NCBI GenBank assembly: GCA_026419785.1
Contig: JAODTK010005913.1
Location: 124,001-188,000 of the forward strand
DNA from: Sclerodactyla briareus
Lineage: Eukaryota; Echinodermata; Holothuroidea; Dendrochirotida; Sclerodactylidae
Direction of reading: 5' to 3'
DNA length: 64,000 nucleotides
The position numbers and the translations under genes are program-made. The notes beneath the pieces are model-generated. The model did no database searches. It had not been told where the DNA came from and was given only the letters and a program-made list of their open reading frames with translations. Shown one piece after another: positions 4,400-34,195 of the stretch; the first letter of the stretch is position 1, and every line of letters begins with the position of its first letter.

Positions 4400-5700
4400 G
4401 GTTAATTTGATTGACTGTCATAATTGTTCTGAAAGTTTCCATATACAATGGTAACGAAATGGGGACGGTTAGTTTGTGGTTTCTTGTGGTTGGGTTCTTC
4501 TTGAATATTGGGGAGATGTTTGCTCTGCGCCAGTCGTCGGGTGTCACTAGTGTCATGGACTGTTTGATGAAAAATGATGCTGATAACGGGGTGGTGAGGG
4601 CTTGACAACTTCAGGGCAGGGTTGGGAATGCCATCTGGACCAGTAGCTTTTGTAGGATCGATGCTGCTAAGTAGTTTCGGCACCCTCCGTAGAAGATGGT
4701 GATCTCGGCATATCTGCACATCTAGGCAGTGTTGATGGTTCCATCTGCTTGGTTGAAGACATGGGCGCTGAGAGCACAGGTTCTTTGTCAAAATCTTATT
4801 GAAGGTAGCATCATTCCTCTCAAGTACAGGGACACCAGCCTTATCCTTTCTCCTTGACCTAAATTAAATCTCCAAAATCTTTTGAGCTATTCAGTTGTAA
4901 TGATTTCAGCAATGGGTCTCGTTTGCTCTCATTATAGACTTTGTTGACTGTGTTCTAGGTGTAATGTGTATGGTCCAGTGGTCATCACGCTGAGGACAGT
5001 TGGCTCTGAGACAAATTTTCTCCCTTTTCCAAATTGCTTTTTCGTGCGTACAGCCTGTGTTAACCAAGGAGGAGCCCTGCTGCCAGAGTAGTGATACGCG
5101 GCACGTGTCCTGTGACCAAAAATCGTTCACAAGAATCGACCAGAGAACTTCCAAGTTCTCCTCCAATGATCTCTCATGGGTGTGGGTTGGAAAAAAAAGC
5201 AATGTTGGATTTCAGTGGAGAGATTTGGACTCGTCATTGTCAAACAACTCTTCCATTTATGGATCTTTCGGGTGTTATTCAGGATTATGGACTTTGTGTT
5301 AAGGAACCCAAGAACTGCAGAATTGTGCTAATTCCCGCATGGGGTTATCACCAAGGGCAATATGGATGGAGGACTTATAATAAAAAGGTCTGGAAGTTTT
5401 CGTTGACCGGTTGAGTGTCTCCTAGTTGTAAAGTGGACTTTCTGTGTGAGGAGGTGGTATTTGCAATCTCAGTCAGATCTCTTGGAGGGGCTCTGGGCAA
5501 CTGCAAGTGTTTTTTACACCATTTCAGCCCGGGAATATTGAAACTCACCACCAAGTATGAGCAGGGTGCATGCTGTGTTGTGTTGCGCAGAGTTATTAGA
5601 CTTGCCTCAAGATTCCTTAGAGTGTCAATGTTTTAGCAGCCTGGTGGGCGATTTTTGAAAGCACGACGAGAAGATCTCGATTCCGCAAGAGAGTTGACAC
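4400..5700 (-). pseudogene. Non-LTR retrotransposon fragment: endonuclease end to RT start
   Basis: The element reads on the minus strand and is broken by several frameshifts. Near 5,551-5,517 the frame gives VVSFNIPGLKW, matching the phosphodiesterase-like GDFN(I/L)PG motif of apurinic-type (APE) endonucleases in non-LTR elements; the usual G-D is degraded to V-S. A basic linker lies around 5,060-4,990. At 4,650-4,624 comes KATGPDGIP, the classic first block of CR1/L2/Jockey-type RTs, followed by decayed text that would hold the W-R and NYRP blocks. The catalytic YADD region is absent, so the copy is truncated at its 3' side near 4,400. Function in life: target-primed reverse transcription. 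This copy is dead. Clade assignment finer than CR1/L2/Jockey-like is not possible by eye. Confidence 0.8.
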
Positions 5701-5719
5701 CACACTAGTTCAGTATCAT

Positions 5720-6400
5720 CCATAGAAAGGTTGGTCCATTAAAACATGGGATATTGTCTATTACATCAATGAACACACCCCCTTCTTGACTTATGATCCT
5801 TACGGAAGACATGATAAGCCGAGTTAAAATAAAAACATGTTTAGCGTCCTTGCTTTTTCGAAAATGAGGAGGAGGCGGGCTGTTTTTTTTTTTTTTTTGG
5901 CGACCCGACCATTGCTTATCAAGATGTTATAACCAGATGGGTGTACCACATGTCCCTTTCTCAGAAGAGGAGGCGCCCTCATCCTTTTTATTTTATGGTT
6001 CTACAGGGACTACTAACCTAAAACATACTTTAATTGTTCCTTTGTCCAAGAGCAAAATGATTGCAGGAGTTAGACTCCAAAAATTCTTCAAAAAAAAGTT
6101 ATGGCCTGAATGAAGAGAAAAAAAAGAATTTTTCAGAATCTCTAAAAAAGGAGGTGGGAGGGGACGCTAAACATGAAATTATTTTTATTTTGCCTAATTG
6201 TCGGGATAGACCTCTGAGCTGTGAATAGCAGGTCCAAGCTTTGATTCTGTACCGAATCTTTTCCTGATTTAGTAGTGCTTATAGTAGCTATTGATGCCGT
6301 CACAGAGCAGGCAAAGCCATACTGCCTCTACTGTAGTTTTATTTTTAATGCTTTACCAGAGGCTAAAGGCTACACAAAAATGTAGTGCTCACTGTCATTT
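5720..6400. other. Unassigned sequence with poly-T run
   Basis: No coding signal was recognised. A T-run lies at 5,882-5,898 and A-runs near 6,092 and 6,118. This is the gap between the minus-strand RT fossil and the TIR element at 6.4 kb. Confidence 0.4.
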
Positions 6401-6404
6401 TTAA

Positions 6405-6673
6405 TTTAAAGCTGCGTTTCCATGCACGCGGGCCGCGGCGGGAGGGGCAGGACGGGGGCGCGGGCGTTTTGGAAGACTCGTTTCCATGCACGCGGGGCGG
6501 GCGTTTTCTCGAGTCACGCACCTCTTCTCACTATTAGTGTGTATATGCGCATATAAGAAACAATGTAGCATACTATTATTTAATATTGTTATTATTATTA
6601 TTGTTATTATTGTTGTTGTGTTGTCGTTGTCGTTGTTGTCGTTGTCGTTGTTGTCGTTGTCGTTGTTGTCGTT

Positions 6674-7269: not shown

Positions 7270-8355
7270 GTTTTAATTCAAAACCTGACTAGTTTTTTTT
7301 TTATTGTGGCATGGAAAAGTGGGACAATCCTGAATAATCAGAACAGATGGTAACCCTAATATGCCCAAAATATTGAATTGTTGCACGATTGGAATGAATT
7401 ACCCCCAGACCGAGGGATTTGTAGACAAACCCTAAGCTGCATAGGCATCTCAACGGAAGGAAATGGACCCTGTACCATAATTTTTTTATATCATGACCAC
7501 CGTGCACCTCCAGGTTTTAAAAATCCTTGCATGTGTAGATGACCAAGCCTTAACACTAACTTACTCAACACTTAACCCAACCATGTAGACAGACGCCCAT
7601 TAGGATATTCCTAACGGAGATTTTTGCTAACCTTCAAAAAATAGTGCCTAAAAAATTTTCGGAACCATTTTGTTCTGTTACTAACCAATATCTGCTTGTT
7701 TGTTTTGAATGCAAGTGAAAGGGCATATTCGAAAGTACAAAGTGAATTTGGTGGGAATCCAGTTATATATTAACCAATTTGACCCTTCACAGGAGAATTG
7801 GACCAAAAATGGGGGTTCGGACAGAATAACGTTGAGTGAAAAGTCATCTGCCAACTTCGAGCTCCTCTAGCTGAAAAAGTCATCGGTCAACGTATGGTAG
7901 TTTGTAAGTGCCATTTGAGTACACTTCTCTGCTTCAAATGAATGGCGGCTTGGGCCTCCAAGTAGGGCACCACAGGGGATCCAAGGACCCGCTAAACGGA
8001 GGCAATTTAGTGTATAAGTTAATGAGCGTCTTCTAATGGAGGTCCGCTACCAACAGCAGCTTAGCCTGAAGATAACGTTACACTGTATGCCTACAGAAGG
8101 CTACACTAGAGTGAAGGTAACTTTGAACATGGATGTGGGAATTTGCGCTACATGGCAGGTATTTGAATAAGTGATGATCTAAGAAATAGCATTGAGGCAA
8201 TGAAAAGATAGGACAGCAATCCTAAAGCAGAGTATAGTATGCGTATTTTCAACTTACGAAAACATGACTCCGCGTTGCACCGTGAAGGCAGCCATTTTTT
8301 GTTCGCGTGTTGCATACAGCAGTGCTTCCACATTTTCCGCAACGAAGGGAATCGG
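7270..8355. other. Unassigned sequence
   Basis: No conserved protein motif, array or inverted repeat was recognised between the TIR element and the composite foldback structure. Confidence 0.4.
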
Positions 8356-8359
8356 GTAG

Positions 8360-9450
8360 GTTCCGTATCTGTCTCCTTCACACGTACAAATATGGGCGGC
8401 CATCGGGGCAATAAAGACATCTCCTCCGCAAAATACGATATACCACCCAAAAAAAAATACACAAACCCCGTCACACAAATAGGAACCAGTCGCAAAGAGA
8501 CGAATTTCCGCCGAAAGGACACCCTCAAGCCAGAAGTCAAGTCCGCTCTTAAAAAGATCTCCCTGGCCAAAAGGCTCCTACGCAGAGAACCAAATCCATC
8601 AAAAGGACATTTCATGGACAGACGACGCCCTTTTGCTGAAGGACCGTTCCGCGCAACGACGATTTCGCCAAAAGACGACATGCACAAAAAGGCCGAATTC
8701 GCAAAAAAAGACGAATTCGCGAAAAACGATACCCTTGTGAGGACATGTCTCCCGGCCAAGAGACGCGCCCATCCGAACGGGGGACCATTGTTGTTGTCAA
8801 AAGACAGAATCAGCCTAAAGGACGCCCTCCCGTCAAAAGACATCTCGAGGGGAAAAGGACGTTTCTTGTCAGAGGAGGTAAGATTTCGAAGAAAACAGAG
8901 GATCGTTACTTGTCGGGAAATAGGCAATCGCCAGGCTATTTATGGAATACCAAATTGTTGTGCACATTGTACGGGCGGTACGTTGCGCAAGTTAGGGTTG
9001 GCAGTTTTTCATTTAACAGACGAGAAGTATTGGATTGGTGTTCGCCATAGATTTCTTATGAAAGTATCGTTATGTGCTCAGCATACACGAAACCAGTCAA
9101 TTATTGTCAGTGATTGTACTGAAATACTTTAGGCACATAATCGCACTAAATTTGGTGAGTTCATGTCAACCACCTATGACAGCAATGTCCTGGCAACACG
9201 AGCTAATGCTCGCTCGATTATAATAACCTGACTGGTCGCCATGCGCTGGATGCCTCATGCCCTCATAGTTCATTCTCATACTCATCTTCTTTTCGCATTT
9301 GAATCGAACAATAACTTTGCTGAGCCGTTTTTAATTTAGCACGTAGGTCTAGTTCTACCCCCTAGACTATGGAACCCCAAAAAGTAAGACCGCCCAAAAG
9401 TATGGACAAGGCCAACAAAAGGTCATCAATGATGCGGGTTCATCCGTCTC
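8360..9450 (+). repeat. Outer block A, left copy
   Basis: This matches the reverse complement of 15,633-16,330, with many small indels. Shared landmarks are the ATCGGGGCAA word near 8,402, the CAAAAGACG-rich centre (8,480-8,870), GTACGTTGCGCAA near 8,980, and TATGGAACC near 9,370. The left copy has about 350 bp (roughly 9,000-9,350) that the right copy lacks. The centre is a loose repetition of RAAAAGACGA-like words, which creates a 297-codon plus-strand frame (8,239-9,132) rich in Lys, Asp, Arg and Phe. Because the inverted copy does not keep that frame and the composition follows the DNA repeat, I do not call it a gene. Confidence 0.75.
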
Positions 9451-9451
9451 A

Positions 9452-9681
9452 AAAGTAGTAGTAAACCTAGTCGTGTGTAGTAGTAAATCTAGTCGTTGTA
9501 GTAGTAAATCTAGTCGTTGTAGTAGTAAATCTAGTCGTTGTAGTAGTAAATCTAGTCGTTGTTGTAGTAAATCTAGTCGTTGTAGTAGTAAATCTAGTCG
9601 TTGTTGTAGTAAATCTAGTCGTTGTAGTAGTAAATCTAGTCGTTGTTGTAGTAAATCTAGTCGTTGTTGTAGTAAGTGTAT
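9452..9681 (+). repeat. 21-bp tandem array (about 11 units)
   Basis: The unit is TAGTCGTTGTAGTAGTAAATC, followed by near-perfect copies with G/T alternation at one position. Read in frame it gives a seven-residue Cys-Ser-Lys-Arg repeat, an artefact of the 21-bp period. The same array recurs inverted at about 12,300-12,515 and 15,400-15,632, and in short plus form at 12,555-12,625, so it forms the outer part of the inverted repeats. Confidence 0.95.
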
Positions 9682-9682
9682 T

Positions 9683-9801
9683 CGCCTGACATGGGATTTC
9701 GCCTGACATGGGATATCGCCTGACATGGGATTTCGCCTGACATGGGATATCGCCTGACATGGGATTTCGCCTGACATGGGATATCGCCTGACATGGGATA
9801 T
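9683..9801 (+). repeat. 17-bp tandem array (7 exact-length units)
   Basis: Seven units of CGCCTGACATGGGATWT, 17 bp each, fill 119 bp exactly. TTT and TAT endings alternate except for the last two units, which both end in TAT; this points to a 34-bp higher-order unit. An inverted, decayed array lies at 12,236-12,300, a two-unit plus array at 12,627-12,655, and traces at 15,356-15,395. There are no unique spacers, so it is not a CRISPR. Confidence 0.95.
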
Positions 9802-9968
9802 CGCCTACCACGGACATGCGTGATTTCGGTTCGCCTCCCACGGAATATCGTAATTCGATACTCTTATATTGATTAACATTTAGTCAGGGCGGGGTTTCTA
9901 CAAAAACCAACCAATAGAATGCGGACAAAAATTGTAAAGAATGCCCAGCCAGGGGGACGATCTGTGTT
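9802..9968 (+). repeat. Inner block C, left copy (deleted form)
   Basis: CGGAATATCGTAATTCGATACTC leads into TTATATTGATTAACATTTAGTCAGGGCGGGG. The fuller version is 12,660-13,075, and the inverted partner is about 15,170-15,355. Relative to 12,660-13,075, this copy lacks most of the interior. Confidence 0.75.
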
Positions 9969-9969
9969 A

Positions 9970-11925
9970 AATATGGGGGGGGGGGGACATTGAGGTAATT
10001 ACCATCTAAGCGGAGCGCCACCATCGTTGACGCGTATCGTAGCGTTTCAGCGTATTCTACGTTTCACTAAAAAACCCCTAGATTTAAGGAAACGGCATTC
10101 CCCGGGCCGAATGGCATGTGAGCAACATCCCTGAAATCGACGATAAACTTCCAAAATATATAATTTAAAAACGTCTTTGAAGTAACTGAACGTTGTTAAT
10201 TCTTTACCATTCGGCGAACCACATTTGACGCGTATCGTACAAAGCTATTTTTCTCCTTACAGGCCACAGAGAGCAGAAATTAACGGCACTTCCTAATTCT
10301 AGACCTTATGGCAGTAAACAACATTTTTTAATTGACGATGGATTTCCGAAATTCACACTCCAAGAAACTTTGTTGGAGGATTCGATCGTTTTTTACGCTT
10401 CACAATTTGCGCCGCCATTGGTCGACGCGTAGCGTACAAGAAATTATTTTGTATGGCCCTTTGCACGACCCCCAGATCGCCAGGGAAGCGGCACATTCCA
10501 TTCCCCTATGGCAGTGCGCAACATGCCTAAAATTGACAATTTATTTCCGAAGTTTATATATCAAGAAATGTTATTCAACAACTGACCGATATTGATTCCT
10601 TGCAATTCTGGCAACCACAAGTTGACGCGTAGCGTGCAAAAAAAAAAAAAAAAAAAAAAAAACCTTACAGACCCGCCAGAATGCAAAATAGCAATACATT
10701 TCCGGAAATTTATACTCAAGGAACATTCTTGAAGTAACTTCGTACCACTATCGGTTGATGCGTGCGTACAATAATTTTTCGTCTCGCAGACCGCCCAGAT
10801 GCAGGAAACGACACCTGCCGGGGCCGTACAGGCAGTAAGCAGCATCCATAAAATTGACAATGAAATTCCGAAATTTATATTTCAGGTAACATTTCGAAGG
10901 AAATGAACGATGTTTACGCCTTACAATTCACGCCACCATCAGTTGCGGCGTCTTTGAGTGTTCGAAAAAAAAATCGTCATACAGATCGCAGTGAGCGACA
11001 CTTCCCGTGCCTTATGGCATAAGCAACCACTGAAATTGACAATTAATTGCCGAAAACTTCCGCTGCTCTTATATTGCCCTTCCAATTGGGCTAAAAGTTG
11101 CCCGCATCTCGAACATTTGCTGTCGTGGGAAAAGTGTGCATTTGTCGGGCCGGTCTTTTGATCAAAATAAATCGAGCCAGTCAGCAGGAAATTCGGTATT
11201 TTTTCAGATTTGTTTGCGTTCAGAATTTTGGTCAAAAATTTTCATGTTTCAGAATAGTTCTTTCGCGCCTATATAGTCCATACGTGCAAACCCCGTAAAC
11301 CTCCATACTGAAGTGCCACGAGCTCCTGCCTCCTGTTTTTTCGTTGTATGCATCTTTATCCAGGATTTTCGGAACCAGAATTCAAGAAGCAGCACGTAAG
11401 AATAACAATAAACAATAAGGATTAGAAGTAGACTAAACTCAAGGCATCGGTTATGTATACTGTGTTAGGGAAATGGCAGTTGGATTCCAGCATGTTGGGG
11501 GAGGGGGGGGGGGGGGCAACACGACTCGTGTCCCAAACCAATTCTCCTTTTGACCTTCCCATATATGTTCACCGCATTTAAAGATGACACGAATGGAGAA
11601 GAAGCATACCTGCCAAAATCAGAAAGGTTATTGTGCATGAGCCTTCTGTATTATTATACAATAACAGAAAGACAGAATACAGTGCGCTCAGCGCGAATTT
11701 TTCGGCATTTTGGCCTTCACCACTAAAATTTAGGTAATCTGATTAGAAAGTATGTGTTAGGAGGCGGCCCGTCGTGTTATGGACTTACTTTAGCCTTTGA
11801 TTGTAGATTGTTTAACAATTCCGCATTTTTTTTTTTTGGGGGGGGGGGGGACATTATTTTGATATTAAGTCCCCCCCCCCACCAAAAATATGGGGGAATG
11901 CCACGCCACACCCCCCCCCCTCCGT
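9970..11925 (+). mobile_element. Family B repeat, copy 1
   Basis: It starts with a G-run (about 9,976) followed by ACATTGAGG and then CATCTAAGCGGAGCGCCACC. Next come about six tandem units of roughly 190-200 bp, anchored on GTTGACGCGTAGCGTAC (near 10,026, 10,225, 10,421, 10,621, 10,754 and 10,941). Each unit carries TTACAGACC, GGCACTTCC, GGGCCGTATGGCAGTAAGCAACAT and AAATTGACAATGAATTTCCG words. A unique 3' part follows (11,050-11,840). It closes with a hairpin in which a G-run and GACATTATTTTGATATTAAGTC face a C-run (11,834-11,880). No protein frame survives. An A-run of about 22 at 10,639 interrupts one unit. Confidence 0.8.
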
Positions 11926-12235
11926 GATCGCCGCCCATGGTGCCCATGCAGCGTAGGACTTCCTAGACGTAAGTGAATTCGACTTTAAAGGGGAGGCGCC
12001 GTGCAAATAACATACGGAAAAGAGACACTGAATCACTAATTTTCATCCCTCTCGTAACTTCCAATCAGCTACACCGGCCGGAGGGTAAAACCAGCTACCC
12101 GTGGTAAATTACCGTATACCCAGTACGGGTAGGTATTGCGTGATAACGATTGCGCCTGGACTGCCCGTTATTTTTTCTACCTAACTGTCGGTAACAGAAT
12201 GGGATCCTTTCCAACCTTACTTAACCCATGTCCCA
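11926..12235. repeat. Right flank of half 1 (C-like, deleted)
   Basis: This aligns to 14,780-15,060 through CCCATGCAGCGTAG, GGGGAGGCGCCGTGC, CCGTATACCCAGTACGG and AACAGAATGGG. The inverted block C expected next, as seen at 15,170-15,355, is missing. The sequence passes directly to the inverted 17-bp array. Confidence 0.7.
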
Positions 12236-12515
12236 TGTCGGCCGATATCCCTGTCAGTCAAAATCCCATGTCAGGCGATATCCCTGCCAGGCGAAATTCA
12301 TTTCTAGACAACTGACTAGATTTTGACTAGCAACAACGACTGAAATTACTACAACAACGACTAAATTTAATACAACAACGACTAAATTACTACCCCAGGG
12401 CGACTAGATTTACTAGCTACACTGACTAGATTCACTACAACAACGACTAGATTTCCTACAACAACGACTAAATTAACTACAACAACGACTAAATTAACTA
12501 CAACAACGACTCGAT
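12236..12515 (-). repeat. 17-bp then 21-bp arrays, inverted
   Basis: CCCATGTCAGGCGATATC-type units (12,236-12,300) are followed by about ten ACAACAACGACTAAATTTACT-type units. They are the reverse complement of 9,452-9,801, in mirror order, with more divergence. They close the first half of the composite. Confidence 0.85.
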
Positions 12516-12660
12516 TTGCTACTCTTTGATGAGGAACGCATAATTGATGTGTAGTACAATCTAGTCGTTGTAGTAGGTAAATCTATTCGTTTTGTAAAAT
12601 CTATTCGTTGTTGTAGTAACTGAATTTCGCCTGACATGGATATCCGCCTGACATGGACAT
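12516..12660 (+). repeat. Junction and restarted short arrays
   Basis: A junction of about 40 bp (GAGGAACGCATAATTGATGTG) resembles the A/array boundary seen near 9,425 and, inverted, near 15,640. About three 21-bp units and two 17-bp units in plus orientation then reopen the second half. Confidence 0.7.
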
Positions 12661-13075
12661 GCGTGATTTCAGTTCGCCTTCCAACGGAATATCGTACTTG
12701 ATACCTCTTATATTGATTGACATTTATCAGGGCGGGGGCTTTTGCTTGATTCAACCACTAGAGGACTCTGAAACAGGGAAGCGGGCCATTGCCGCAGTTA
12801 GCTGCTTACCTTGTGTGGGGTTGTCAAAAAAGGGGCATGGGACATAAAGTAACCAACATTTCAGTCAGTTACTCCGGGGCGGGGTTTCTCTCCACAACCA
12901 ACCATAGAATGCGGCGTCGCAAAATGAACTTTTTAGCTTTGGCGAGAGACGGAAATCCCGTTTGACCGCCGGCCAGCGAGTTGAACCGTGCGCAAATGAA
13001 AATTAAGCACTATTGATGGATGATACCGACAAAGAAATTGAAAAGTATGCCAGCCAGGGGGACGATTTGTGTGAA
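12660..13075 (+). repeat. Inner block C, fuller copy
   Basis: This matches the reverse complement of about 15,170-15,355 through ATATCGTACTTGATACCTCT, GAGGACTCTGAAAC, GGTTGTCAAAAAAGG and GACATAAAGTAA. It is the inner domain of the inverted repeat. GCCAGCCAGGGGGACGAT at its right edge also precedes copy 1 of family B, so that word may belong to the host element. Confidence 0.75.
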
Positions 13076-13078
13076 TAT

Positions 13079-14780
13079 GGGGGGGGGGGGGGCATGAGGT
13101 ATTTACCATTAAGTGGAGCGTCACCTAAGGTTGGCGCGTAGCGTTTCAGCGTATTTCTACGTTTCACTAAACCACTAGATTACAGAACACGCATTCCCGG
13201 GCCAGCAATGGAGTGAGCAACAATCCCTGAAGCGACGATATTAAACTTCCAAAAATATATATTTAAAAAACGTTCTTGAAAGAACGTTGTTAAGTCCTTA
13301 CCCGTAGGGCAACAATCAGTTGACGCGTAATTCGTACAAGCTATTTTCCCTTACAGGCCCCAGAGAGCAGAAATTAACGGACACTTCCTAATTCTAGACC
13401 TTATGGCAGTAAACAACGATTTTAATTGACGATGGTTTTCCGAAATTCACACTCCAAGAAATTTTGTTGGAGGATTCGGTCGTTTTTTACGCCCTACAAT
13501 CGCGCCGCCATGGTCGACGGAAGCGTACAAGAAATTATTGTATGGCTTGCAGACCACCCGATCGCAAGAGCGGCACATCTAGGCCCTTTGGCAGGAGCAA
13601 CATCTATAAAATTGACAATAATTTCAAGATAGTGATATCTCAAGAAAGTTTCAAACACAACCTGACCGATATCGAATTCCTTTGCATTCGGGCAACCACT
13701 AAGTTGACGTGAGCGTGCAAAACAAAAAAGCCTCAAGACCCGCCATAATGCAGGGAGCGTCACTCCCGTGCCGTATGGCAGAAGCAACGGCCTAAAATTA
13801 GCAATACATTTCCTGAAATGTATATATCAAGAACATTCTTGAAGCAATTCGGACCACTATCAGTTGATGCGTAGCGTACAGAATTTTGTTGTCTCGCAGA
13901 CCGCCCAGAATGCAGAAAATCGTCATACAGATCGCAGTGAGCGAAACTTCTCGGGCCGTATGGCATTAAGCAACATCACTGAAATTGAAAAAATTGCCGG
14001 AAAACTTCCGTGTTTTTAATGCCCTTCCAATTGGGTGAAAGTTGCCCGCATCTTGAAAAATTTGCTGTCGTGGAATAAGTGTGCATTTTTCAGCCCGGTC
14101 TTTTGATCGAACACAAGCAGACAGTCAGCAGTAAAATTGTAATTTTTTTCAGATTTGTTTCCGTTCAGAATTTTGGTCGAACATTTCATGTTTCAGAATT
14201 GTTCTTAGCCCTTATAGTGCCTACGGTCAATCACCCGTAAAAACCTCCAGACTGATGTGCACGATATCCTGGCCTCCTTGTTTTGCGTTGTATATATTTT
14301 ATCACGAGCAGAAGTAAGTCCGTGCGGCCGGCTTGGATTCCAGCATTTGTTGGGGAGGAAGAGGAGGGGGGGGGGGGGGGGGATGGGGGGGCAAAACGAC
14401 TCGTGTCCCAAACCCACATTCTCCTTGTGACCTTCCCTTATATGTTCACGCATTGAAGAGACACGGAACGGAGAAGAACAGCCCTATAGTGCCAAAATCA
14501 GCAACGGTTATATGTGCATGGGCCTTCTTATAGCATGCAAGTAACGGAAGACAGAATGACCGCGCGCTCAGCGCGAAATTTTCGGCATTTTGTGCCTTCA
14601 CAATAAATTTAGTCAACTGATTAGAAGTATGTGTTAGGGCGTTGTGTTATGGGCCGTACTTACCTTGATTGTAGGATTCTTCACCAGTCCGCAAATTTGG
14701 GGGGGGGGACTTATTGATATTTTTCAGTCCCCCACCAAACATATTGGGGGGAATCCACACCCCGTCCCCCTCCCGGATTC
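13079..14780 (+). mobile_element. Family B repeat, copy 2
   Basis: It has the same order as copy 1: G-run, the AAGTGGAGCG head, about five tandem units (anchors near 13,132, 13,319, 13,512, 13,703 and 13,864), the unique 3' part (14,000-14,690), then the G-run/C-run hairpin (14,698-14,735). It differs from copy 1 by many 1-3 base indels rather than mainly by substitutions. It sits at the same position in the host element as copy 1, so the two were probably duplicated together with the host element rather than inserted twice. Confidence 0.8.
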
Positions 14781-15632
14781 GCCGCGCGCCCATGTGCCCA
14801 TGCAGCGTAGACTTCCTAGACGAAAGTGAATCGACCGGAAAGGGGAGGCGCCGTGCACATAACATACGGAAAAGAGAGACGGAGTCAATAATTCAGCATC
14901 TCGTACTTCCGACTCGAATCAGCTACAGGCCGAGAGTAAAAGTCAGTACACATGTTACCATAGCCGTATACCCAGTACGGTACTATTGCGCGCTAGCGTA
15001 GCGATTGCCGCCGGGACTGCCCGTTATTTGTTCCTACCTAAATGTCGGGAACAGAATGGGTATTTTTCACACCTCTACAATAACTTACAGCCGTGCAAAA
15101 CGATTGTAAATGCGTATAGGACATGAAGATAGCACATGTTAAAACTAATTAATTAGGCATAAAGCTTATATATGGTAGAAATGTTCGGCTTTACTTTATG
15201 TTCCAGACCTTTTTTGACAACCACACAAGCGTGAGCAAGAAACCTGCAGCGATGAGTTCAGAGTCCTCTATTGGTTGAATACAAGCAAATAAGCCCCGCC
15301 GCTCTGACTAAATGTCAATCCATATAAGAGGTATTAAAATACGATATTCGTGGAGGCGATAAGCCCATGTGAGGCGAAATCCAGTCAGGAGAAATTCATT
15401 TACTACAACACGGACTAGATTTACTACAACAACGACTAGATTACTACTACAACGACAGAAATGTATACAACAATGACTAAAATTACTACAACAACGACTA
15501 GATTACTACTACAACGACTAAATTTACTTCAACAACGACTCGATTACTACTACAACGACGAGATACTACAACAAAGACACGATTACTACTACAACGATGA
15601 TTTACCACACAACGACTAGATTACTACTCTTG
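14780..15632 (-). repeat. Right flank, inverted C and inverted arrays of half 2
   Basis: The segment 15,170-15,355 is the inverted copy of block C. Positions 15,356-15,395 hold traces of the 17-bp unit, and 15,400-15,632 hold about eleven 21-bp units as CTACAACAACGACTAGATTA. Together they close the second half. Confidence 0.8.
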
Positions 15633-16330
15633 ACAATGGATACGCAAATTGAGGACCTTTGGTTCCATATTCTCAGCATGATGCTAGTCATTACCTAGGT
15701 CACTGACTCGCGACCCTATTGCGCAACGTACCGGCGTACTCAATGCCACAAAAATTTGGTAATATAAGTTCCCGCGTGCCTATTTCGAATGTTACGCCCT
15801 CTGCATCTCCTAATATAATCCTCTGACGCGACGCGTCTTTTGACGGGAGTTGTAAGTTTCCGGGGGGGGGGGGGGGGGGCTTTCGCCTGACTATGAACCT
15901 TTGACACAATTGTCCCCCTGTTCGGTTGGGCGTCTTTTGCCGGGAGATGTCCTCACGGGAGGGTATCGTTTTCGCGAAATTCGTCTTTTTGCGATATTCC
16001 GTCTTTTTGTGGCAAGTCGTCTTTTGGCGAAAATCGTCCTGTTTCCGGACGTCCTTTAGCAGACGGCGTTGTTTTCTGTCCAGGAAATGTCCCTTTGATG
16101 GGATTTGTTCTCTGCGTAGGAGGCGGTTGGCCAGGTGATCTTTTAGCGGGACTTGACTTCTGGCTGAACGGTGTCCTTCGCGGAAATTCGTCCTCTTTGC
16201 GGCTGTTCTTGTTTTGTGCCGGGTTTGTGTGATTTTTATATCTATTTGGTATAATATGGTATATTCTTTTTTGCGTGCCTTGTTTTGCCCCGATGCGGCC
16301 CAGATACGAACACTCATCACTGGTTCTCGC
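15633..16330 (-). repeat. Outer block A, right inverted copy
   Basis: This is the reverse complement of the block at 8,360-9,450, lacking about 350 bp. A G-run lies at 15,861-15,879. The minus-strand 218-codon frame here (15,700-16,356) has the same Lys/Arg/Asp-rich repetitive character as its partner but is out of register with it, which argues against a shared protein. Confidence 0.75.
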
Positions 16331-31605: not shown

Positions 31606-31606
31606 C

Positions 31607-33190
31607 AGGACGGCGATCTGTGTTAATTATGTGGAGGGGGGGGGGGACATTTGATGGTCATGACCATCTAAGCGGAGCGCCATATAGGTTGGCGCGTATC
31701 GTACGAGAAAATTTTACGTTCCACAGAACCCCTAGATTGCAGGAACGGCACTTCCCGGGCCGTGTGGCAGTAGACATCATCCCAAAAATTGACAATGGAT
31801 TTCCGCAATTCATATTTCGAAAGTTATATTCCTAAAAATGTTCTTGAAAGAACTGACCGATGTTTATTCCTCACAATTCGGGCCACCATCAGTTGACGCG
31901 TAGCGTGCAGGATTTTTTGCCTTACAGAACTCCCCCCCCCCCCCCCCGTTAATGCAGGGAACATCACTTCCTGCGCCGTATGCCGTGTGTAAGCAACGGG
32001 GCCCAAAATTAGCAATATATTTCCGAAATTCAACTCTCAAGGAACATTCTTGAAGGGAGTGATCGATGTTATCCTTACAATTCCGGTCACTATCGGGACA
32101 TTTTTGTCTCGCAGACCCCACAGAATGCAGGAAGCGACACTACCCGGGCCTTACAGAAGTAAGCCTGTATGCAACATCATGAAATTGACAATGATATTCC
32201 GAAATTATATCTCAAGAAAACGTTTGGAAGGAAATGACCGATGTTTTAGCCCTTCAATTCACGGCCCCATCAGTTGACGTGTCTTCGAGCGTACAAGAGA
32301 AAAAAAATCTGTCATACAGACCCCCAGATTTCAGGGAGCGGCACTTCCGGGCCTTAATGCTGCGGCCAGTAAGCAACATCACTGAAATTGACAATACATT
32401 TCCGAGAACTTCCGCTGCTCATATATTGCCCTTCCAATTGGGTTAGAAATTGCCCGCATCATGAAATTTGCTGTCGTGCAAAAAGTGAGCATTTTTCGGT
32501 CCGGTCCATCGATCAAAACAAATTGAACCAGTCACTCCGGAAATGTTGTCATTTTTTCAGATTTGTTTGGTCTGAAATGTTCATGTCTCAGAATTGTTTA
32601 CCCGCGCCTATATAGTGCCATACGTAAATCACGGAAACCTCCATACTGATACACACGATCTCCTGGCCTATTGGTTCTCGTTACATTCATCTTTTATCAA
32701 GAAGCAGCACGTAAGACCCGGGCGGCAACAAGCCGGTCTATATAAACAACAAGGATTAGAAGTAGACTAAACTCAAACCATCGGTTATGTGCAGCGTTAG
32801 GGAATGGCAATTGGATTCCAGCTAGGTGTGGGGGGGGGGGGAGTCCTTGTTGCCTTCCTATATATGTACTGCACTTGTAGATGACACGAATGGAGAAGAG
32901 GCATATCTGCCAAAATCTGAAAAGTTATTGGGCATGGGCCTTCTGTGTTATACACGAAACGGAAAGACAAACTGCAGCGCGTAGCGCGAAATTTCATGGC
33001 ATTTTGGCTTTCACATCATAAAATTTGAGCAATCTGATTAGAAATATGTGTCAGGCCTTCTCGTTATCGCCTTACTATACCTTTGATCGTAGGATTTTTT
33101 CACCAGTCCGCTAATTATTGGGGGGAAGTTTGATATTATGTCCCACCCAACCAAAATATTGGGGGGACAGTCCCCCCGCCCCCCTCCCCT
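31607..33190 (+). mobile_element. Family B repeat, copy 3 (in BEL/Pao integrase)
   Basis: GCGATCTGTGTTAATTATG, then a G-run (31,635-31,645), ACATTTGATGG and CATCTAAGCGGAGCGCC start the copy. About four tandem units follow, with anchors near 31,688, 31,894 and 32,272 and a degraded one near 32,090. The 3' unique region (32,410-33,105) contains TTGCCCTTCCAATTGGG and GCGCGTAGCGCGAAATTTCATGGCATTTTGG. It closes with G-run and C-run segments (33,120-33,190). It is flanked on both sides by BEL/Pao integrase text, which fixes its limits independently of the other copies. Roughly 60-70 integrase codons are missing at the site, so the insertion was not clean or was followed by deletion. Confidence 0.85.
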
Positions 33191-33192
33191 TC

Positions 33193-33471: not shown

Positions 33472-34195
33472 GACATGTGTAGGCGGTTAAACCGCCCACG
33501 TGTATATCCCCGCTTTTGAGCAATCATTGGGAGAAGTATCTGACACCCCATAATCTTGGTCAGAAACCAAGATAAACTTCAACTTCAAGTTTTGTTGTAA
33601 TCTATGGAAGTTTATAGGCAGATGAATTATTCAAATTTGACCCACGATGGCTTTGAAGTGACTTCTAATTTTATATGGAACAAATGTAGCCCCCATCCAC
33701 CAAGTTGCGTTCAAATCTGGCAAAGTTTGCATAGATCGCATAGATTTCGCAAATTTGACCCTCCGATGACCTTGAAATGACCTCCACATTTTTCGGGATC
33801 AACTATAATCCCTACCCACCAAGTTTCGTTCAAATCTGACAATGTTTGGAAAATCGCTTAAATTCCGCAAATTTGAACTTCGATGACCTTGAAATGACCT
33901 CCACATTTTTCGGGATCAACTATAATCCCTACCCACCAAGTTTCGTTCAAATCCGACTAACTGAAATTTTTGCATATTATGCAAATTAGCGGCCCCAAGC
34001 ATAGCAGTGATGCCACTTGAAATCAGCCGGGATTTTCACTAGGGCGGACATGTGTACCAAGTTTCAGATCAATCGGATAAAGTGTTGAAGGGTTATTGCG
34101 CTGACGCCTAAAATTTCCGGCGGCGGCGGCGGGGCCGGCGGCCGGACGGCGGGGCACACACCCAAAACCATAATATCCCGGACACTTCCAGTGTC
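33472..34195 (+). repeat. Dispersed CAAGTTTCGTTCAAATC repeat, copy 1
   Basis: Contains three iterations of an approximately 125-bp module with GACCTTGAAATGACCTCCAC, TTTTCGGGATCAACTATA and CCACCAAGTTTCGTTCAAAT. It ends in a run of GGC repeats (34,120-34,150). Related to 51,365-51,800. It sits between two integrase pieces of the BEL/Pao element, so it inserted after that element. Confidence 0.7.

What the first reader, a model, noticed from the sequence alone, without database searches (positions are those of the whole stretch)
8360..16330. Foldback-type composite with inverted repeats made of 21-bp and 17-bp satellites
Inverted repeats with an outer domain of short tandem units (21 bp, then 17 bp) and an inner unique domain are the hallmark of foldback elements such as sea urchin TU. 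Here two such units lie in tandem and the whole is capped by a further pair of inverted outer blocks (A). Each unit carries a family-B cargo. I know of no described element with exactly this two-array architecture.
Basis: partly seen in the sequence, partly recalled or inferred. Interest (0 to 1): 0.75.

Follow-up and report, generated by a model that had tools for sequence, protein, structure and literature searches.

The report
Nested satellite-ended foldback transposons
This 8-kb stretch is two different families of old, gene-less jumping elements, one sitting inside the other, whose ends have grown into short tandem repeats; it is a new variant of a known architecture rather than a new kind of object.

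Summary
In detail: inverted 21-bp and 17-bp arrays flank two tandem units that each carry B, with a further inverted pair A outside. The interpretation needs three corrections. (1) It is nested, not one composite. A is the TIR pair of a separate family, found in inverted pairs on eight other contigs where no 21/17-bp array matched. Six of six fetched empty-site loci show A (8391-16304) as one insertion with a 6-bp duplication (TACAAA/TACGAA). (2) The 21/17-bp units are a dispersed element ("S"; arrays match on 20 contigs) with its own tip, TATGGAACGCCAAAAGGGTCACTCAA; the tip stands beside 25 of 31 array blocks and in 1 of 400 random stretches. (3) B is a high-copy repeat inserted into S before S dispersed; S copies without B exist.

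A and S have TA..TA termini and about 6-bp duplications, the published signature of IS3EU/GingerRoot transposons, not of Mutator-type foldbacks or sea-urchin TU (8 bp, recalled). One S frame looks like a helix-turn-helix below threshold; no transposase core was found in S, so the superfamily is inferred. The window's S is a dimer with eroded inner ends. Likely role of the arrays: extra transposase-binding sites in non-autonomous elements. The assembly probably carries indel errors.

The parts
8385..8390 (.). left target-site copy of the A insertion (TACAAA)
   Evidence: empty-site alignments, six loci; tip position
8391..16304 (.). A element: foldback transposon with TATGGGCGGCC... tips, interrupted by S
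8391..8998 (+). A left arm with degenerate 18-bp periodicity (autocorrelation z 4.3 at lag 18)
8999..9364 (+). A centre, shared with A copies on C2231 (to 9352) and C2904 (to 9364)
9368..15669 (.). S dimer (two 21/17-bp foldback units) nested in A; first tip-like TATGGAACCCC at 9368, second (7 edits of 26) at 9401, right tip ending 15669 (5 edits)
9455..9675 (+). 21-bp array, unit 1 left end
9682..9806 (+). 17-bp array, unit 1 left end
9807..9947 (+). S inner domain of unit 1 (shared with other S copies)
9948..11940 (+). B, unit 1 copy: high-copy repeat inserted in S; nine matched rows of B outside S end at 11939-11940
12231..12297 (-). 17-bp array, unit 1 right end
12308..12522 (-). 21-bp array, unit 1 right end
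12523..12549 (-). unit 1/unit 2 junction: remnant of sub-tip sequence, outer tip missing on both sides
12550..12616 (+). short 21-bp array, unit 2 left end (no tip)
12624..12656 (+). 17-bp units, unit 2 left end
13050..14790 (+). B, unit 2 copy (limits approximate)
14810..14900 (+). S sequence after B that, in the B-less copy C2130, continues a frame resembling a helix-turn-helix exon
15400..15628 (-). 21-bp array, unit 2 right end
15706..16304 (-). A right arm with degenerate 18-bp periodicity (z 4.1)
16305..16310 (.). right target-site copy of the A insertion (TACGAA)

Best explanation
Two similarly built non-autonomous DNA transposons of different sequence are nested here. Element A, whose inverted arms are a degenerate 18-bp array, inserted into a dispersed repeat and made a 6-bp target duplication. 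Element S then inserted into A; S has a 26-bp tip followed by a 21-bp array, a 17-bp array and an inner domain. Two S copies were joined head to tail, most likely by S-into-S insertion followed by loss of the palindromic inner tips. Each S unit carries B, a high-copy repeat that an S ancestor acquired in a frame that looks like old coding sequence. TA..TA termini and about 6-bp target duplications point to the IS3EU/GingerRoot group, with the enzyme supplied in trans. The arrays probably act as multiple binding sites for the transposase's N-terminal domain and grow or shrink by slippage or unequal exchange. Shown: A and S are separate families, arrays stand at S ends, TA..TA termini, A's target duplication with empty sites, shared S/B junctions, one S ending inside another S on C975. 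Supported but not proved: S's own target duplication and the S-into-A junction. Inferred: superfamily, binding-site role, array turnover, route to the dimer.
For: A recurs in plus/minus pairs within 4 kb on C2231, C2396, C1249, C31, C2904, C3111, C1048 and C1151, none of which is among the S-array hits. With the A flanks joined, 10 of 16 non-self matches span the joint by at least 20 bases on each side, and 6 of 6 fetched loci read through TACAAACAC without A. S tip: 15 matches at <=3 mismatches, 0 for the reversed pattern. Tip beside 25 of 31 array blocks, control 1 of 400. Flanks outside TATGG..CCATA of 12 S copies agree more than permuted flanks at k=5 (4/2000) and k=6 (21/2000); with gaps k=6 gives 0/1000; without the 3 copies in satellite X, k=6 gives 28/2000. 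Approximate empty S sites in X monomers. S ending inside S on C975, one side seen. Shared left S/B junction in seven copies. Published IS3EU signature: TA..TA termini, TSDs usually 6 bp (PMC10045372, passages). Galileo precedent for transposase sites in TIR tandem repeats (PMC3688188, passages).
Against: No transposase core was found: 10 frames from S loci gave nothing above Pfam cut-off (A copies outside the window were not scanned), the S frame gives only sub-threshold HTH matches (HTH_AsnC E 6e-4) and no protein homologue. The genome's rva_4 matches are on other contigs, and the one locus read has no S or A tip. The window's own S, C99, C2777 and C839 show no readable target duplication. 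In the gapped test k=4, 7 and 8 are also low (25, 13 and 25 of 1000), so the length is not sharply fixed, and several k were tried. A copy L049 shows no duplication. The A empty sites share only about 25-34 bases left of the joint. No A copy gives an empty site for S: A homology stops at 9364 but no other copy resumes with 15670 onward. The stand-alone B of the window falls among the S-borne copies in the tree, on a long branch beside C673 (support 0.96), which does not fit a clean single origin of S-borne B.
Confidence: 0.68

Rival explanations
1. S and A are Mutator-superfamily (MULE/Phantom) foldbacks like Tetris and Tm1, the commonest source of foldback architecture.
For: Foldback elements mostly fall in Mutator (PMC4079207, section 17); composite TIRs with one tandem motif of variable copy number are described in Tm1 (PMC3169594, passages); MuDR relatives are said to make 4-10 bp duplications (PMC10045372, passages).
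Against: Tetris and Tm1 make 8-10 bp duplications; here the ungapped flank signal is at 5-6 bp and not at 7-10, though the gapped test is also low at 7 and 8, and the A empty sites give 6 bp.
Confidence: 0.15
2. S and A are Tc1/mariner-type elements with a TA target duplication, the TA of TATGG..CCATA being target, not element.
For: TA stands before TGG in most of the 15 tips and in many; several X-satellite empty sites contain one TA.
Against: Beyond the TA the S flanks agree over 5-6 bp in excess of permutations, and the six A empty sites read ACAAACAC at the joint, without TA there.
Confidence: 0.08
3. The whole 8360-16330 block is a single composite element that transposes as a unit, A being its true outer ends.
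For: A tips do bound the block, and the block as a whole is missing from six empty-site loci.
Against: A pairs occur on eight contigs with no S-array match, and S arrays match on 19 contigs with no A match (lower-bound lists); S has its own tips and flank duplications.
Confidence: 0.04
4. The S dimer arose by local head-to-tail duplication (unequal exchange between arrays) rather than by one S joining another.
For: The inner junction runs array into array without tips, as unequal exchange would leave it; tandem S-plus-spacer arrangements exist on C834, C1735 and C2179.
Against: Unit 1 is closer to the C673 copy (83.4%) and C2777 (80.3%) than to unit 2 (77.9%); an S ending inside another S is seen on C975.
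Confidence: 0.3

Closest known systems
IS3EU / GingerRoot DNA transposons
   Same: TA..TA termini and about 6-bp target duplications in both A and S; an N-terminal helix-turn-helix-like frame in S (sub-threshold).
   Different: No catalytic domain found in S; the one locus read from this genome's rva_4 matches does not bear these tips. Terminal arrays are not mentioned in the passages read.
Tetris (Drosophila virilis foldback)
   Same: Outer flanking domain, tandem-repeat domain, inner domain, variable middle, no coding copies found; array number varies.
   Different: One repeat type of about 220 bp against two short arrays (21 and 17 bp) here; 8-10 bp duplications against about 6 bp.
Tm1 (root-knot nematode Mutator/foldback)
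   Same: Composite TIR with a short tandem motif (13-15 bp) in variable number, differing between the two ends.
   Different: 9-bp duplications, Phantom-type transposase, one array type.
Galileo (P superfamily)
   Same: Foldback-like TIR with internal tandem repeats, in which additional transposase-binding sites were shown.
   Different: P-type transposase; different tips.
Sea-urchin TU elements
   Same: Outer TIR domain of short tandem repeats, inner unique domain (recalled; no paper held under the terms).
   Different: 8-bp duplication and a single 15-bp repeat type (both recalled).
miDNA4 (Xenopus Tc1/mariner MITE with satellite)
   Same: A mobile element with a satellite array of variable length inside it (review PMC12628747, passages).
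   Different: A satellite monomer or array within a MITE, not two arrays in its inverted ends; Tc1/mariner type.

Membership tests
Foldback elements (structural class) | long inverted ends with an outer domain of short tandem repeats and an inner domain | tested here: met
Foldback elements (structural class) | dispersed copies bounded by target duplications | tested here: met
   A: empty sites, 6 of 6 fetched loci. S: excess of 5-6 bp flank agreement over 12 copies, but at least 4 copies without a readable duplication
IS3EU/GingerRoot | TA..TA termini | tested here: met
   criterion from PMC10045372 passages
IS3EU/GingerRoot | 6-bp target duplication | tested here: met
   A: TACAAA/TACGAA with empty sites. 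S: signal at 5-6 bp, statistical only
IS3EU/GingerRoot | IS3/IS481-like DDE transposase encoded by an autonomous relative with the same ends | tested here: inconclusive
   no coding copy found; the 43-aa frame matches 5 places, each in a contig with S; no homologue; rva_4 present in the genome but not linked
Mutator-type foldbacks (Tetris, Tm1) | 8-10 bp target duplication | tested here: not met
   gapped test low at 8 too but best at 6
Sea-urchin TU | 8-bp target duplication (recalled) | tested here: not met
Tc1/mariner | TA target duplication | tested here: not met
   A: empty sites carry no TA at the joint. S: flank agreement extends beyond TA
Ordinary satellite | arrays independent of mobile-element ends | tested here: not met
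   25 of 31 array blocks carry the tip within 110 bp; 1 of 400 random stretches

The most novel reading that the evidence does not exclude
This genome hosts at least two IS3EU/GingerRoot-type families (A and S) that independently turned their inverted ends into short-period satellites, one of them with two different arrays in fixed order (tip, 21 bp, 17 bp) and sometimes with asymmetric ends (21+17 on one side, 17 alone on the other). It would be, as far as my searches show, the first foldback class in that superfamily and would suggest that its transposase uses array-borne binding sites.
Probability: 0.45. Interest if true: 0.55.

Novelty: new variant of a known kind. Interest (0 to 1): 0.42.

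Why it matters
Foldback architecture has been tied mostly to Mutator elements, with exceptions such as the P-type Galileo. A foldback with IS3EU-type termini would show that satellite-built ends evolve again in another transposase lineage, and it would give a natural series (0 to 16 units of 21 bp, 0 to 17 of 17 bp per end over 27 ends) for testing whether array length sets transposition rate. It also bears on how transposon ends become satellites, since S already sits in longer tandem arrangements on three contigs.

Tried and rejected
TA target duplication: first favoured from the tips, dropped after the A empty sites and the flank permutation.

Local duplication as the source of the dimer: not favoured, because unit 1 is closer to C673 and C2777 than to unit 2.

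Recognisable transposase: Pfam on 10 frames from S loci and 10 from the window gave nothing above cut-off. The S frame gave only sub-threshold HTH hits and no protein homologue. A copies other than the window's were not scanned against Pfam.

Identifying the host by COX1: no match in the assembly. Actin pieces lie in adjacent frames (C1260 170309-170820, C2792 267460-267940), so frames in this assembly probably suffer indels and absence of an open frame is weak evidence.

17-bp array as an expansion of an inner-domain motif: best distance 4 edits, and 73 of 500 shuffles reach <=5, so not significant.

Rfam on the window at gathering threshold: nothing. TU literature: no paper with the three terms.
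Full report
Observation. The window lies in an unnamed 319-Mb assembly of 3171 contigs. The A arms (8453-8998/15713-16237, 75% inverted) and the two B cores (78-82% direct, in pieces) are also real.

Two families, not one. A searched genome-wide gives 45 matches on 24 contigs (31 candidates scored, a lower bound), with plus and minus copies within 4 kb on C2231, C2396, C1249, C31, C2904, C3111, C1048 and C1151. The 21/17-bp boundary gives 46 matches on 20 contigs (also a lower bound). The window's contig is the only one in both lists. I fetched seven A loci: L048, L049, L051, L053 and L054 are clear inverted pairs, L050 shows only a short inner inverted arm, and L052 one arm. Both A arms in the window show 18-bp periodicity (z 4.3 and 4.1, the best of lags 8-59), so A is itself a foldback with a degenerate array.

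A is an insertion. With the window flanks joined, 10 of 16 non-self matches span the joint by at least 20 bases on each side; they share only about 25-34 bases to the left and 87-143 to the right. Six were fetched, and all six read through the site: empty CACG-TACAAA-CACCATCACTGG, or one or two bases different; window CACG-TACAAA-[A]-TACGAA-CACTCATCACTGG. That gives a 6-bp duplication with one mismatch and an element of 8391-16304. Of three other A copies with both tips held, L048 (CTCAG/CTCAG) and L053 (ATTAAG/ATTAGG) agree roughly, and L049 does not.

S is an element. Array loci share the tip TATGGAACGCCAAAAGGGTCACTCAA. The pattern search with the last 24 bases finds 15 sites at up to 3 mismatches and none for the reversed control. 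In 20 fetched regions on 17 contigs plus the window, 34 array blocks were found; 3 are repeats of the same place in overlapping regions and were dropped. Of the 31 left, 25 have the tip at <=7 edits within 110 bp outward. The misses are L012, L024 (9 edits), a second piece on L028, a TTG run at 6629 that is not an array of this family, and the two inner ends of the window's dimer. Random stretches: 1 of 400. Of the 20 array contigs C1908 was not looked at. Unit numbers over 27 ends, counted leniently (<=6 edits of 21, <=5 of 17), run from 0 to 16 and 0 to 17; five ends (C99, C2777, C2809, C975, C293) have 17-bp units only.

Target duplication of S. Taking TATGG..CCATA as the ends, 12 copies show flank agreement beyond permutation at k=5 (33 of 60 mismatches against 43.6; 4/2000) and k=6 (43 of 72 against 53.4; 21/2000); k=3, 4, 7, 8 and 10 show none and k=9 gives 127/2000. 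Allowing gaps, k=6 is best (0/1000), with k=5 1, k=7 13, k=4 and k=8 25 each and k=9 71 of 1000. Dropping the three copies that sit in one satellite (X on C834 and C1735) leaves k=6 at 28/2000 and k=5 at 107/2000, the other k from 3 to 8 showing nothing. No correction for trying several k was made. Clear cases are C673b (TTTATC both sides) and C834b (GGTAG both sides). C99, C2777, C839 and the window's own S show none. X monomers in the same arrays give approximate empty sites at about 69-74% identity.

B. B is a dispersed repeat with 1738 first-look candidates, 40 scored; nine matched rows outside S end at window 11939-11940. S copies without B exist (C2130, C834), and in C2130 the S sequence runs through as an open frame MDDTDERIVNYF...STVKRRRCALNIRK; B interrupts it in the window. 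The left S/B junction is shared by unit 2 (the query) and six further copies (unit 1, C99, C2777, C2809, C30, C3166; 8-15 edits of 56, shuffles not below 21). On the right, unit 1, C99, C2777, C2809, C30 and C975 match (11-21 edits of 75, shuffles not below 30). C673 lacks the left junction and on the right keeps target bases that the others have lost. The stand-alone B at 31606 has neither junction. So S moved after it gained B. Against a clean single origin, a tree of the units puts the stand-alone B beside C673 on a long branch (support 0.96).

Nesting of S in A, and the dimer. A homology on the left runs to 9364 (C2904) and stops where the first tip-like TATGGAACCCC stands at 9368. No fetched A copy resumes with the right flank, so this junction lacks its own empty site. 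Unit 1 and unit 2 are 77.9% identical, less than unit 1 to C673 (83.4%) or C2777 (80.3%). On C975 one S ends directly in the inner domain of another (L025 1501 | 1505-2054; only that side is in the contig). The inner junction at 12523-12550 has no tips. I infer joining of two S copies and loss of the palindromic tips.

What it works like. TA..TA ends with usually 6-bp duplications are the published signature of IS3EU; GingerRoot is similar (PMC10045372, passages). Described foldbacks with tandem TIRs, Tetris and Tm1, make 8-10 bp duplications (PMC4079207, sections 10 and 17; PMC3169594, abstract and passages). The S frame gives only sub-threshold HTH matches. The genome does carry five rva_4 integrase-core matches (that this domain marks IS3EU enzymes is recalled), but the one locus read has no S or A tip. 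Galileo is the precedent for tandem TIR repeats holding extra transposase sites (PMC3688188, passages). My reading: non-autonomous IS3EU-like foldbacks moved in trans, arrays serving as multiple binding sites and drifting in length.

Limits. Frames in this assembly probably carry indels: actin pieces fall into adjacent frames. The host was not identified. One search for IS3EU together with foldback found a single paper, where the two words occur apart, in a table and a reference, so I found no described IS3EU foldback in that open library; subscription papers and Repbase were not searched.

Noticed in passing
L013/L014 (C834) and L018/L019 (C1735): S units recur in these contigs with a roughly 2-kb spacer made of a repeated monomer (X); other X monomers are uninterrupted at about the S insertion point.
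   Followed up: partly
L017 (C2179) 1-436, 4636-6465 and following flanks: S plus its right flank recurs about 6 kb apart at 76%, another tandem arrangement.
   Followed up: no
L042 about 1499-1673 (C839): A roughly 175-bp miniature element with an S-like tip and a diverged 21-22-bp array, probably a sister family.
   Followed up: partly
window 9948-11940, 13050-14790, 31606-33192: B is a very abundant 2-kb repeat with internal degenerate repeats; a duplication of about 7-8 bp (TGCCCAT) may flank it in S.
   Followed up: partly
L010 left flank and L022 4324-4599: S copies on C2777 and C30 share 300 bp of left flank at about 78%, ending at the tip; either a shared target repeat or a larger duplication.
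   Followed up: no
window 7772-8056: Repeat also found at 88% in the left flank of the S copy on C673.
   Followed up: no
window 33632-33957: 117-bp tandem repeat, 2.8 copies.
   Followed up: no
G000 C2228:244031-244449 (L061): Broken integrase-core (rva_4) transposase, without S or A tips in the 2.6 kb read.
   Followed up: partly
G000 C1260:170309-170820 and C2792:267460-267940: Actin pieces split into adjacent reading frames, which suggests indel errors in the assembly.
   Followed up: no
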